Below, piece after piece: positions 2,829 to 6,957 of a stretch of DNA of 64,000 bases. Under the pieces are notes generated by a model. The model did no database searches, was not told the DNA's origin, and saw only the letters and a program-made list of their open reading frames with translations. The translations under genes were made by a program, and so were the position numbers. The DNA comes from Symbiobacterium thermophilum IAM 14863 (GTDB lineage Bacteria > Bacillota > Sulfobacillia > Symbiobacteriales > Symbiobacteriaceae). The first letter of the stretch is position 1. Each line of letters opens with the position of its first letter. The DNA lies in the NCBI RefSeq assembly GCF_000009905.1, contig NC_006177.1, positions 1,488,001 through 1,552,000 on the forward strand, in the 5' to 3' direction.

Positions 2829-2914
2829 TCTTTATAAACAAAGGCTTGGTCACCCGGCTGCCGTCACTGGGCTGGGGACCGGAACTTCGGGTGCGCAGAC
2901 GGGAGGGTCCTGAC

Positions 2915-3619
2915 TTGTACTTCTACCCGATGTTTGATCCGACCATGATCTTCCTGTTGCCGGCGATCATCCTGGTCATCTGGGCACAGGCGCGGGTGCG
3001 CAGCTCGTTCAACGAGTGGTCGCAGGTCGGCACGCGCTCGGGGGTGACAGCCGCCCAGGTCGCCCGGGACATCCTCGACCGGCATGGGCTCACCGACGTG
3101 CCCGTGGAACGGGTCCGGGGCTACCTGAGCGACCACTATGATCCCCAGAAGCGGGTGGTTCGCCTCTCCGATTCGACCTACTCCAGCAACTCGATTGCGG
3201 CGATCGGCGTGGCCGCCCACGAGGTGGGGCACGCCATCCAGCACGAGCTCTCCTACACGCCGCTGCAGGTCCGCAACCTGATCTGGCCGGTGGCCCGCAT
3301 CGGCGACAGCCTGGGGCCGTTCCTGGTGATCATCGGCCTCATCTTCGGCGGCTACTCGGGCCAGATGCTGATGGACATCGGCATCCTGCTGTTCCTGGGG
3401 GCGGTGCTGTTCTACCTGATCACCCTGCCCGTGGAGTTCAACGCCTCCAGCCGGGCGGTGGAGATCCTGGAGACCGGCGGATACATGACCCGCGAAGAGG
3501 TGGCCGGCGCCAGGAAGGTGCTGAACGCTGCGGCGCTCACCTACGTGGCCGGCGCGGCGACGGCGATCATGAGCCTGGTGCGGCTGCTGTTCCTGCGGAG
3601 CATGGCGTCGGATGACTAG
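2915..3619 (+). CDS. YugP-family zinc metallopeptidase, membrane-anchored
   Basis: A 234-residue integral membrane protein of the YugP (peptidase M48-like) family. Residues 10-30 form a hydrophobic anchor. The zinc motif AAHEVGHAIQHE lies near residue 103 and the preceding DHYDP...VRLS segment is typical of the family. Two to three more hydrophobic segments follow. I chose TTG 2915 because GGGAGGG lies 8 bases upstream and the protein then begins MYFYPMFDPTM; a longer frame starting at 2846 has no good ribosome site. The substrate is unknown. The gene occupies its usual clostridial place after fmt. Confidence 0.88.
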   Translation: MYFYPMFDPTMIFLLPAIILVIWAQARVRSSFNEWSQVGTRSGVTAAQVARDILDRHGLTDVPVERVRGYLSDHYDPQKRVVRLSDSTYSSNSIAAIGVAAHEVGHAIQHELSYTPLQVRNLIWPVARIGDSLGPFLVIIGLIFGGYSGQMLMDIGILLFLGAVLFYLITLPVEFNASSRAVEILETGGYMTREEVAGARKVLNAAALTYVAGAATAIMSLVRLLFLRSMASDD

Positions 3620-3626
3620 CGGAACG

Positions 3627-3657
3627 AACCGGCTTGCCCGTGCGGGCGAGCCGGTTT
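3627..3657 (+). terminator. Rho-independent terminator after the YugP gene; intron landing site
   Basis: A 13-bp stem (ACCGGCTTGCCCG against CGGGCGAGCCGGT, one G-T wobble) with a 2-base loop and a following TTTT. It ends the def-fmt-protease transcript. A group II intron begins six bases further on, the placement expected of class C introns, which use terminator stems as targets. Confidence 0.85.
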
Positions 3658-4068
3658 TCTCGGTGTGCCCGGCATGGGCGCTGACTTGGCGGTGAAAGTC
3701 CGCTACGGGCGAGGCAGCACCAGCCCGTTAGCCAAAGGCAAGGGTGTCCGTCGTGAGGCGGAATCTGAAGGAAGCCCGAGGCAAAGCCACGACCCGAGGA
3801 ACACGAACCCCATAGGAGGCTGTGCCGCTCGGGTGAGCTGGCCGAACACAGCAAAACCCGAAGCTGCCAAAGGGCGGTGCGGTAGATGGGGCGGGTGCGG
3901 GGTGAAGGTCAGCGTTCTTACCCGGGGAGATCTGCCGGGAACGCCAGCAACGCTGGTAACCTGCGTCGGGAGACGCAGCTGAACCGGCAGAAGTCAGCAA
4001 AGGCCATAGTACCGGCAGGGGGACGCCCCAACCGGGAAGGGCCGAACGTCAGGAAAGGGGTGAACCCG

Positions 4069-5508
4069 TTGCGTTCGAGCAGCCCGCGACAAACGCAGAA
4101 GACCCCGAACGGGACCTGCTCGCCGGAGGTAGCGGTGAAGCCGCAAGGGACGGCGAGAGGGCGGAGTGGGCAGCCGGCACAAGACGGAACGTTACCCCGC
4201 GGGGAGCACAGCAACCTGATGGAGCAGGTGGTGGCCAGGGAGAACATGCTGGCCGCCCTGAAACGGGTGGAGCGGAACGGAGGCGCTCCCGGCGTGGACG
4301 GTGTCCCCACCGAACGGCTGCGGGACCAGATTCGCGTGGAGTGGAGCCGCATCCGTGAGGGACTGCTCCAGGGGACCTACAGACCGCAGCCAGTCCGCCG
4401 GGTCGAAATCCCGAAACCGGGCGGCGGCAAGCGGATGCTGGGGATTCCCACCGTGATGGACCGCCTGATCCAACAGGCACTCCTGCAAGTACTGACGCCG
4501 ATCTTTGACCCGACATTCTCCGAATCCAGCTACGGCTTTCGGCCGGGGCGGCGGGGTCATGATGCGGTCAGGAAGGCACGTCAGTACGTGGAGGAAGGGT
4601 ACGACTGGGTCGTGGACATGGACCTGGAGAAGTTCTTCGACCGGGTCAACCACGACGTGCTGATGGCCCGCGTGGCGCGGCGGGTAACGGATAAGCGTGT
4701 GCTGCGGCTGATCCGGCGGTACTTACAGGCTGGGGTCATGCTGAACGGGGTAGTCGTGGCGACGGAGGAAGGGACGCCGCAGGGCGGTCCGCTGAGCCCG
4801 CTGCTGGCGAACATCCTGCTGGATGACCTCGACAAGGAGCTGGAGCGCCGCGGGCACCACTTCGTCCGGTACGCCGATGACTGCAACATCTACGTCCGCA
4901 GCAAGCGGGCGGGAGAACGGGTCTACAGGAGCGTGCGCCACTTCCTGCAGGAGCGGTTACGGCTGAAGGTCAACGAGGAGAAGAGCGCAGTGGACCGGCC
5001 GTGGAAGCGGCAGTTCCTCGGGTTTAGTTTCTACAAGCACCGGGGAGTGCGCATCCGGCTGGCCCCGAAGAGCCTGAAGCGCGTGAAGGACAAGCTCCGC
5101 ACGCTGACGGACCGCAACCGCAGCCAGAGCATGGAGGACCGAATCCGGCGCCTGAATGCTTACTTGCGGGGCTGGGTTGGGTACTATGCGCTCTCCGATG
5201 CCAGGTCAGCCTTTGAAAGACTCGAAGGATGGCTGAAGCGTCGGCTGCGAGCATGCGTATGGAAGCAGTGGAAGCGTGTACGCACGCGCTTTCGGGAGTT
5301 GCGCGCCCTCGGTTTGCCCGAATGGGTAGTCCACCAACTCGCCAACAGCCGCAAAGGCCCGTGGCGGATGGCAGGTGGCCCACTAAACAGCGCCCTGGGC
5401 GACGCCTACTGGCGTGCCCAGGGGCTGATAAGCCTGACCGAATGCTATGAAGCGACTCGTCAATCCTGGCGAACCGCCGGATGCGGACCCGCATGTCCGG
5501 TGGTGTGA
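4069..5508 (+). CDS. ltrA: Group II intron reverse transcriptase/maturase
   Basis: Splices and mobilises the surrounding intron. Reverse transcriptase motifs are intact: GAPGVDG, KPGGGKRMLGIP, SSYGFRPGR, DMDLEKFFD, GTPQGGPLSPLL and the catalytic YADD followed by CNIYV. The maturase (X) region follows, with RLNAYLRGWVGYY. No HNH endonuclease domain is present, which fits class C introns. I place the start at TTG 4069, preceded by GGAAAGGGG; ATG 4219, just before the catalytic domain, is the alternative. Length is 479 residues from TTG 4069. The stop codon lies inside or just after domain V, a compact arrangement usual in this class. Confidence 0.93.
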   Translation: MRSSSPRQTQKTPNGTCSPEVAVKPQGTARGRSGQPAQDGTLPRGEHSNLMEQVVARENMLAALKRVERNGGAPGVDGVPTERLRDQIRVEWSRIREGLLQGTYRPQPVRRVEIPKPGGGKRMLGIPTVMDRLIQQALLQVLTPIFDPTFSESSYGFRPGRRGHDAVRKARQYVEEGYDWVVDMDLEKFFDRVNHDVLMARVARRVTDKRVLRLIRRYLQAGVMLNGVVVATEEGTPQGGPLSPLLANILLDDLDKELERRGHHFVRYADDCNIYVRSKRAGERVYRSVRHFLQERLRLKVNEEKSAVDRPWKRQFLGFSFYKHRGVRIRLAPKSLKRVKDKLRTLTDRNRSQSMEDRIRRLNAYLRGWVGYYALSDARSAFERLEGWLKRRLRACVWKQWKRVRTRFRELRALGLPEWVVHQLANSRKGPWRMAGGPLNSALGDAYWRAQGLISLTECYEATRQSWRTAGCGPACPVV

Positions 5509-5542
5509 GAGGACGGGGGCTAGCCGCCCCCTCCTACTCGAT
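5471..5542 (+). ncRNA. Group II intron domains V and VI
   Basis: Domain V starts at GAACCGCC (5471) and folds as a long hairpin: GGATGCGGACC pairs with the following GCATGTCC-containing arm. Domain VI is the GGGGGC/GCCCCC hairpin at 5513-5532, followed by the unpaired region with the likely branch-point A at 5536, six to seven bases from the 3' splice site. Domain V overlaps the last codons of the reverse transcriptase gene. Confidence 0.75.
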
Positions 5543-5590
5543 CGCCATGGGGCGATCACCTGGTCAGCGCCCGTCTGGTCCCGCGGGGCG

Positions 5591-6070
5591 TTGGAGGCGG
5601 AATGTACAGTCGGCTCGGGTGGCCGGGTGTACAATCCGCCTCGAACCGTGGACCCGCGGCACAGTTGGAGGCGGAATGTGCAGTCGGCTCGGGTGGCGGG
5701 GTGCACAATCCGCCTCGAACTGTGGACCCGCGGCGCAGTTGGAGGCGGAATGTGCAGTCGGCTCGGGTGGTCGGGTGCACAACCCGCCTCGAACCTCGGA
5801 CCTGCGGGGTCGTTGGAGGCGGAATGTGCGGTCGGCTCGGGTGGCGGGGTGCACAATCCGCCTCGAACCGTGGTCCTGCGGGGTCGGTGGAGGCGGAATG
5901 TGCAGTCGGCTCGGGTGGTCGGGTGCACAACTCGCCTCGAACCTCGGACCTGCGGGGTCGTTGGAGGCGGAATGTGCAGTCGGCTCGGGTGGCGGGGTGC
6001 ACAATCCGCCTCGAACGACAGACCGGAGGGGGAGTTGACGGCGGAATGTCCAACCGAGCTGGATGGTTTG
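5591..6070. repeat. Tandem array of 74-bp hairpin repeats (6 units plus a degenerate 7th)
   Basis: Units begin at 5591, 5665, 5739, 5813, 5887 and 5961, all exactly 74 bp apart, with a decayed copy at 6035. Each unit carries a 15-bp inverted repeat (first unit 5594-5608 and 5628-5642) around a 19-base loop, starting GAGGCGGAATGT and closing ACAATCCGCCTC, with a constant A-A mismatch. In unit 1 a G-C pair has become A-T on both arms, a compensatory change. The array is nearly free of stop codons on both strands, so long open frames run through it, but 74 is not a multiple of 3 and no fixed peptide repeat results. The long frames are artefacts. Function unknown. Confidence 0.9.
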
Positions 6071-6119: not shown

Positions 6120-6302
6120 ATGCGGCGGTGCCTCGCCTACCTGCTTGGGCACCTGATCGTGGCGGCCGAGTACCTCGATACTGACGTGCTGCAGCAGTAC
6201 GTGGCCTGGAGCGAGGAGCTGGGGGTGACGCTGCCCGAAGTTCCCTACCGCCCCCTGCCGGGTTACCCGCCTTATCCGCAAGTCGAAGCCAGGGAGGGGT
6301 GA
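6120..6302 (+). CDS. Small hypothetical protein
   Basis: An open frame of 60 residues beginning MRRCLAYLLGHLIVAAEYL, downstream of the hairpin array. The first half looks like a regular amphipathic helix and the last third is Pro/Tyr-rich. GGAGATA lies 12 bases before the ATG. The frame is open upstream to a stop at 6069, so it may be the tail of a longer ancestral protein cut by the repeat array. I do not recognise a family, and coding status is uncertain. Confidence 0.4.
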   Translation: MRRCLAYLLGHLIVAAEYLDTDVLQQYVAWSEELGVTLPEVPYRPLPGYPPYPQVEAREG

Positions 6303-6406
6303 AGCGGCGGCACTTTGGACGCCGCTGCTTTCGCGGGAATGGCCCGCGTGAAGAGCCTCCGCGCGCGGGAATGCTACCTGCACATCTCCGGCGGGAGGCC
6401 GTCAAC

Positions 6407-6754
6407 GTGAACCACACCCCTGTTTCTTTCCGCGTCACCGCTTCCGACCGGGACGAGGAGCGGCTGGCCATCGAGATCCGGGGCACGCCGGCGGGCGAGG
6501 CGGTGATCCGGTACGGCTCCGGCACCGCCACCGTCGATGCCCGGGTGCAGCTGAGCGAGTTCCCCCAGGTGATCATGGCGCTGGACCGGTTCCACCACGA
6601 GTTCGCCGCCGAACTGCTGGCTTACGTCCTCGACCGGGGGGCGATGGCGCAGGAGTCGGACGGCTCGATCATCTACGACCTGGGATCGGCACTGCACGCG
6701 GTGCCGCTTCCGGCGAACCACGAGGTCGGCCTCGGCTACCCCAACTCGTGGTGA
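6407..6754 (+). CDS. Hypothetical protein, 115 residues
   Basis: Begins at GTG 6407 with GGGAGG about 9 bases upstream and reads NHTPVSFRVTASDRDEERL. The composition is that of a normal globular cytoplasmic protein, with alternating strands, a helix with FHHEFAAELLAYVL, and no membrane segment. An in-frame extension to ATG 6299 is Arg-rich and less protein-like, so I favour the shorter start. It lies alone between the repeat array and rsmB. No family recognised. Confidence 0.6.
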   Translation: MNHTPVSFRVTASDRDEERLAIEIRGTPAGEAVIRYGSGTATVDARVQLSEFPQVIMALDRFHHEFAAELLAYVLDRGAMAQESDGSIIYDLGSALHAVPLPANHEVGLGYPNSW

Positions 6755-6847
6755 CCCCCTGGAAAGCCGGGGGACTGGGCGAGCGTCCGCGATCCGGGCA
6801 GGGCGGGGTACTCCCCGCACGGGGGTCCGGAGATGACCGGGTGAGGC

Positions 6848-6957
6848 GCCGGCGAAGGCGGCGAAGGCGGCGGCGAAGGCAGCGGCGAAGGCGCCGGCAA
6901 AGGTGGCGAAGGCAGCGGCAACGGTGGCGAAGGCAGCGGCGACGGCGGCGGACGGCT
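6848..6957. repeat. GGCGAA/GGCAGC microsatellite-like tract in a non-coding gap
   Basis: About 110 bases of imperfect GGCGAAGGC-type hexamer/nonamer repeats on the + strand, such as GGTGGCGAAGGCAGCGGC occurring twice. The flanking gap 6755-7138 has no convincing gene. Translated on the minus strand the tract gives only Ala-rich or Pro/Ser-rich low complexity, and on the plus strand only Arg-rich low complexity. Probably slippage-generated sequence. Confidence 0.65.

What the first reader, a model, noticed from the sequence alone, without database searches (positions are those of the whole stretch)
5591..6070. 74-bp hairpin repeat array with a compensatory base change
Six units at exactly 74-bp spacing, each a 15-bp inverted repeat with a 19-base loop. 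Unit 1 has A-T where the others have G-C at one stem pair, so both arms changed together. That argues that the folded form, as RNA or cruciform DNA, matters. The array is nearly stop-free on both strands. It starts about 50 bases after the group II intron, so intron and array may be linked, for example as a preferred target or a recombination product. No CRISPR-like unique spacers are present.
Basis: partly seen in the sequence, partly recalled or inferred. Interest (0 to 1): 0.68.

Follow-up and report, generated by a model that had tools for sequence, protein, structure and literature searches.

The report
Helix-phased palindrome arrays in Symbiobacterium
The six-copy hairpin array is one of about fifteen such arrays scattered through this bacterium's chromosome; the paired arms lie exactly 19 bases apart and the copies repeat at whole turns of the DNA helix, which suggests they are phased landing sites for an unknown DNA-binding protein rather than a structured RNA.

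Summary
The array is real: six units at exactly 74 bp, window 5594-6012, plus a decayed seventh copy in register. It is not a local duplication. The genome (size matches Symbiobacterium thermophilum; recalled) holds at least 71 units at 15 intergenic places, and one of two congeners examined holds at least 14 more at six places. No other genome searched clearly has the family. Between arrays the arms stay 78-86% identical while loop and linker are near chance, yet the arm gap is 19 nt in all 85 units scored. Array periods (74, 85, 107, 117, 127, 138, 172 bp) sit at whole helical turns (10.65 bp): R=0.92 over 15 linker-unrelated groups, p<2.5e-6; counting each size class once, p=8e-4. One orthologous array differs by one full turn between species although its linkers no longer align. 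The 'compensatory change' exists, but across 47 own-genome units the arms do not covary beyond shuffling. No other array locus scanned has a group II intron. Best reading: REPIN/BIME-like palindromic arrays without RAYT transposase or REP tags, constrained as double-stranded DNA, probably as same-face binding sites for an unidentified symmetric protein. Function is untested.

The parts
5594..5642 (+). unit 1: arms 5594-5608 and 5628-5642, 19-nt loop 5609-5627; carries the A-T pair
5668..5716 (+). unit 2 (arms 5668-5682, 5702-5716)
5742..5790 (+). unit 3 (arms 5742-5756, 5776-5790)
5816..5864 (+). unit 4 (arms 5816-5830, 5850-5864)
5890..5938 (+). unit 5 (arms 5890-5904, 5924-5938)
5964..6012 (+). 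unit 6 (arms 5964-5978, 5998-6012)
6038..6052 (+). decayed left arm of a seventh unit, in 74-bp register
5576..5593 (+). linker-like sequence before unit 1, the decayed edge of the array
3663..5542 (+). group II intron with reverse transcriptase ORF 3886-5508, inserted between upstream gene and array; a neighbour, not a part. The 5' end (GTGTG) is read by eye
   Evidence: 5' end inferred
3627..3660 (+). terminator-like hairpin with T-rich tail after the Zn-peptidase gene (2846-3619), just before the intron; seen by eye, not listed by the terminator scan
   Evidence: not called

Best explanation
A dispersed family of palindromic units that works as double-stranded DNA. Each unit is two inverted 13-15 bp half-sites at a fixed distance (32 bp between equivalent points of the 13-mers, 3.0 turns of 10.65 bp). 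[quoted passage not shown] Shown: dispersal, arm conservation, the 19-nt gap, phase-locked periods, within-array homogeneity. Inferred: a symmetric DNA-binding protein reads the arms and touches its neighbours along one face, forming a nucleoprotein array placed mostly beyond gene 3' ends (chromosome organisation, supercoil handling or a boundary). Also inferred: arrays grow and are homogenised by tandem duplication and unequal exchange. The protein is not identified.
For: 71 own units at 15 places and 14 G002 units at 6 places, all with a 19-nt gap when the gap was left free between 5 and 44 (85 of 89 hits. The other four are two decayed edge copies, L027 and L029, and two hits judged chance, L023 position 646 and L050). 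Single-arm pattern: 68 of 69 genome hits lie in the 15 places, reversed control 0. Between arrays: left arm 86%, right arm 78%, loop 42% (chance 36%), linker 39.7% (chance 39.4%). Neighbouring linkers differ in length in 19 of 45 comparisons; the same rate predicts 7.6 loop indels, and all 85 units have 19 nt. Helical phase: all 18 arrays with two or more units lie within 0.16 turn of an integer at 10.65 bp; 15 linker-unrelated groups R(10.5)=0.916, 0 of 400,000 simulations; any period 4-40 bp, 0 of 20,000; one per size class (7) p=7.8e-4, own arrays only (13) p=5e-6. Orthologous array between glyS and a GyrI-like gene: 117 bp in own genome, 127.5 bp in G002, linkers unalike, both with the rare right arm GGTAT. 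E. coli K-12 BIMEs, same test on array means: R=0.25, p=0.75, n=5.
Against: The phase pattern was noticed before it was tested. Six of the 18 arrays rest on one spacing each. Linkers of the 85-bp class may share descent that the similarity test missed. No binding protein, transcript or chromatin data. G-U exceeds A-C mismatches on the array's + strand (38 against 24 array-by-pair events), a weak lean towards RNA. Congener G001 (99% complete) has none, so the function is dispensable in the genus. Phase could reflect how arrays are born, not what they do.
Confidence: 0.5

Rival explanations
1. Selfish palindromic repeats of the REPIN/MITE kind: the arms are recognition ends for an enzyme that moves or copies units, and whole-turn spacing arises because pairing of neighbouring units on a short DNA segment needs the same helical face. 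No host function.
For: Dispersal to many intergenic places, turnover between species (the window place and the L053 place lack an array in G001 and G002), fixed-length doublets as in REPINs (PMC3116915, passages). Neutral linkers and loops.
Against: No Y1/RAYT transposase in the own genome (0 matches to PF01797; control rings in 5 of 14 genomes). Loops and linkers are saturated between arrays while arms are kept, so arms stayed constrained long after spread. No transposase recognised by eye among the flanking proteins printed.
Confidence: 0.26
2. RNA element: units are transcribed and the hairpins act in RNA, for example as 3' UTR stabilisers, terminators or small RNAs.
For: Strong folding of both strands (z -10.9 and -9.5); covariation above shuffles on the two-species alignment; slight G-U excess on one strand.
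Against: No covariation beyond shuffles within the own genome; 24 of 47 own units lack a standard pair at columns 12/44; no inner stem; no T tract seen; no promoter-like site found; array strand runs against both neighbours at L021 and L022; RNA gives no reason for whole-helical-turn periods.
Confidence: 0.14
3. Recombination junctions: arrays serve as, or are tolerated as, exchange points between chromosomes and species.
For: At the orthologous array L049/L056 DNA identity is 99-100% for about 3.2 kb on one side and about 81-92% past the array, with 71-95% again beyond the 3.2-kb block; one end of the block is the array.
Against: One case; G002 is a metagenome bin, and a mis-joined assembly at a repeat cannot be excluded. 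The L048/L059 place shows no such step in its flanking proteins (89% and 86%).
Confidence: 0.07
4. Simple local tandem duplication without function.
For: Exact 74-bp period, homogeneous copies.
Against: Fifteen places in the genome with conserved arms but unrelated linkers.
Confidence: 0.03

Closest known systems
REPIN (REP doublet forming a hairpin; Pseudomonas fluorescens SBW25)
   Same: Two conserved inverted ends at fixed distance with a variable spacer; intergenic; also in tandem arrays that include flanking sequence (PMC3116915, passages).
   Different: Here no GTAG/CGTC tag, arms not hairpins, no RAYT gene; loop 19 nt; periods at whole helical turns. The SBW25 GI-GIII array repeat (112+72 bp in those passages) is not a whole number of turns.
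BIME / REP arrays of enterobacteria
   Same: Tandem palindromic arrays outside genes, reported to bind gyrase, IHF and Pol I (PMC2817692, passages).
   Different: No tag; in 450 kb of E. coli K-12 the five clusters with same-orientation gaps were not phase-locked as array means.
CGTC-tagged REPs without a dedicated transposase
   Same: Palindromic family without its own enzyme (PMC3733652, passages).
   Different: No CGTC at unit ends (0 of 79); short 4-5 nt loops there. 'Symbiobacterium' and 'Firmicutes' do not occur in that main text.
sopC-type partition arrays (recalled; one search gave listings only)
   Same: Tandem direct repeats each holding an inverted repeat bound by a protein.
   Different: Plasmid-borne, one locus; here about 15 chromosomal places and no known protein.

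Membership tests
REP/BIME/REPIN | GTAG or CGTC tetranucleotide tag at the end of the element | tested here: not met
   0 of 79 units at the outer end for either tag
REP/BIME/REPIN | each REP half is itself an imperfect palindrome | tested here: not met
   longest internal stem 1-3 bp in 75 of 79 left arms (4 bp in 4) and in 79 of 79 right arms; window unit 2 arm folds -0.6 and 0 kcal/mol
REP/BIME/REPIN | RAYT (Y1 transposase) in the genome | tested here: not met
   0 matches to PF01797 in own genome, control positive in 5 of 14
REP/BIME/REPIN | dispersed, intergenic, inverted doublet with conserved ends and fixed spacing | tested here: met
CRISPR array | unique spacers between identical repeats | tested here: not met
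   linkers are repeats of each other within an array, 82% identical
Known structured RNA (Rfam) | match above gathering score | tested here: not met
   no array unit matched; only intron parts in the window and one tRNA in the 19 other loci scanned
Structured RNA in general | covariation beyond shuffles | tested here: inconclusive
   none in own-genome units, some in the two-species set
Phased protein-binding array | unit spacing in whole helical turns | tested here: met
Phased protein-binding array | a protein that binds the unit | not testable with these tools
   needs binding or ChIP experiments

The most novel reading that the evidence does not exclude
A genus-restricted chromosome-architecture element: about fifteen phase-locked palindrome arrays on which an unknown protein forms one-faced nucleoprotein filaments, a chromosomal counterpart of a multi-site partition or boundary array, with selection preserving helical phase while the linker DNA turns over completely.
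Probability: 0.33. Interest if true: 0.85.

Novelty: new variant of a known kind. Interest (0 to 1): 0.62.

Why it matters
Bacterial palindromic repeat families have been debated for decades: RNA hairpins, selfish elements or DNA-protein sites. Here the period itself is informative. If periods are whole helical turns in arrays whose linkers are unrelated, and stay so when an orthologous array changes length, the selected or generating event happens on double-stranded DNA. That makes the question testable with a 5-bp insertion.

Tried and rejected
CRISPR, Rfam families, RAYT/Y1 transposase, plasmid, phage and virus relatives: all negative. Inner stem in the loop: no support. Linkers growing by 10-11 bp sub-repeats as a trivial cause of quantisation: lag 10 z=-0.7, lag 11 z=2.0, lag 12 z=3.0, lag 21 z=-0.7, so no clear sub-repeat, though lag 12 is slightly raised. 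Intron-array link: not general. Pattern scan of the genome-contig collection: only JAMNXV01 contigs plus four single matches in unrelated genera, judged chance (the window's own genome may be left out of that collection). Empty site: G001 has a plain 246-bp gap with a hairpin at the window place; the glyS place in G001 is rearranged and its contig ends there, so no empty-site comparison there. Orientation to neighbours from my own simple gene caller: convergent 7, tandem 7, divergent 1 of 15; a weak ORF at L025 would make it 8:6:1, an overlapping weak ORF at L024 was ignored; convergent against divergent p=0.07, suggestive only. Replication co-orientation 12 of 15 (p=0.035) rests on a recalled origin position; by the sign of flank GC skew it is 10 of 15.

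Rows dropped before counts: the 140-bp spacing of L022 was left out of its mean (13.1 turns); L056 (ortholog of L049) was left out of one test and kept in others, as labelled; the L054 period was set to 126.5 after a third, truncated copy was seen at the contig end. In one search one of the five sequences (L023) was a linker taken by mistake and is not used. In one search the pooled same-orientation gaps gave p=0.002, but 9 of the 13 come from one cluster; array means (n=5) gave p=0.75.

Limits: model searches scored only 150 candidates in the own genome, and one search counts 85 plus-strand matches but lists only part, so more decayed units, perhaps another array, may exist. R1, R2 and the pattern assume a 19-nt gap; searches do not.

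Full report
Observation. Window 5594-6012 holds six units at exactly 74 bp, each two 15-nt inverted arms around a 19-nt loop; 12-14 of 15 pairs are Watson-Crick. A decayed seventh left arm follows in register at 6038, and linker-like sequence precedes unit 1, the usual decayed edges of a tandem array. Unit 1 has the A-T for G-C exchange described.

Dispersal. The window is G000:C1:1488001-1552000 of a 3,566,135-bp genome. That size equals S. thermophilum IAM 14863 by recall; no call named it. A unit finds 42 matches by blastn; a covariance model finds 138 rows on both strands (the palindromes ring on both). Arm matrices with a free gap give 71 units at 15 own-genome places: near 620, 700, 1206, 1249, 1494, 2105, 2369, 2553, 2572, 2741, 2771, 3189, 3366, 3441 and 3504 kb. 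Of 69 exact single-arm hits, 68 lie in these places. Of 61 genomes (own plus relatives), only own and congener G002 match; of 154 class genomes, again only these two at E 0.001. At E up to 1, G004 shows one weak match (0.06) and G007 two (best 0.002) that I did not follow; the three-mismatch pattern finds none in G007 or G001. G002 corresponds to the JAMNXV01 bin (inferred from equal contig lengths and positions), 88% complete; three of its arrays sit at contig ends.

What is conserved. Between arrays the left and right arms are 86% and 78% identical, the loop 42% (chance 36%), the linker 39.7% (chance 39.4%); within arrays all parts are 82-91%. If arms were alike only through recent copying, loops would be alike too; they are not. 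So arms were constrained after the spread, while tandem exchange keeps each array uniform. The gap between arms is 19 nt in 53 of 53 units with a free gap of 12-30 and in 85 of 89 hits with 5-44.

Helical phase. Periods are 74-75 (window, L023, L027, L028), 85-86 (L021, L024, L025, L029), 106-107 (L022), 117 (L048), 126-128 (L049, L054, L056, L059), 138-139 (L055, L057) and 171-172 (L051, L052). With 10.65 bp per turn these are 7, 8, 10, 11, 12, 13 and 16 turns, all within 0.16 turn and with no offset, as expected if equal copies face one side. The test is after the fact, but 10.5 bp is the textbook value and a scan of all periods from 4 to 40 bp gives the same answer. The strictest count, one value per size class, gives p=7.8e-4. 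The array between glyS and a GyrI-like gene is the same array in both species (flanking proteins 89% and 86% identical; shared odd right arm GGTAT) but has 5 units at 117 bp in one and 3 at 127.5 bp in the other, with linkers that do not resemble each other. A second shared place (L021/L054, neighbour 70% identical) has 85.6 against about 126.5 bp. E. coli BIMEs in 450 kb do not show phase locking as array means (R=0.25, five clusters), a small control.

RNA or DNA. Covariation is absent among 47 own units and present among 79 units of both species, chiefly at one pair that is A-U in 14 units. Arms of a two-fold symmetric protein site change in the same way. G-U over A-C mismatches is 38 to 24, a slight lean to RNA that I cannot dismiss. 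The phase result concerns double-stranded DNA and decides the balance for me.

Setting. Neighbours are unrelated housekeeping or transport genes (proteins printed and named by eye; Pfam only for window genes). Most places lie beyond gene 3' ends: 7 convergent, 7 tandem, 1 divergent. At the window the intron (RVT_1 and maturase domains) lies between the Zn-peptidase gene and the array. None of the 14 other own places has an intron match. In G001 the window place is a short plain gap, in G002 an array-free stretch of about 780 bp.

A recombination hint. At L049/L056 the own and G002 sequences are 99-100% identical for about 3.2 kb ending at the array, with 71-95% beyond it on the far side and 81-92% past the array. 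One case, in a metagenome bin.

Literature. Searches for Symbiobacterium repeats, helical phasing and palindromic arrays listed nothing that describes this family by title or abstract; the genome paper (recalled DOI) is not held. Seen as passages only: PMC3733652, PMC3116915, PMC2817692, PMC1242344, PMC1924867. Absence from print is claimed only for those searches.

Verdict. A new, genus-restricted variant of dispersed palindromic repeat arrays that fails the REP tests; most likely a DNA-level, helically phased protein-binding array (0.5).

Noticed in passing
L049 (G000:C1 about 700.6-704 kb) and L056/L102 (G002 C99, about 17.3-20.5 kb): A 3.2-kb block carrying ABC transporter genes is 99-100% identical between the two species, with 71-95% identity around it; one end is the hairpin array.
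   Followed up: partly
L097 4172-4231 (G002, window-orthologous place): A single hairpin with 22-nt arms (82% complementary) and 16-nt loop containing GGAATGAGC/GCTCATT, perhaps a distant relative of the family.
   Followed up: no
L053 about 2839-2886; L082 (arms 6775-6788 and 6805-6818); many contigs of G001: Another dispersed hairpin (GGGGCTGTCCC...) is common in G001, often about 50 bases from contig ends, like an insertion-sequence end.
   Followed up: no
L051 and L052 linkers: TACCCC...GGGGTA palindromes next to the units, resembling metal-regulator (CsoR-type) operators as recalled; the two loci share linker similarity.
   Followed up: no
window 6299-6754: ORF of 151 aa without Pfam match whose DNA is 77-82% identical in both congeners; conserved protein of unknown function.
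   Followed up: no
window 6844-6951: GGCGGC/GGCGAA-rich short tandem repeats between genes.
   Followed up: no
L098 8-91 (G001 C47 contig end): A fragment 90% identical to the window's group II intron at the end of a G001 contig.
   Followed up: no
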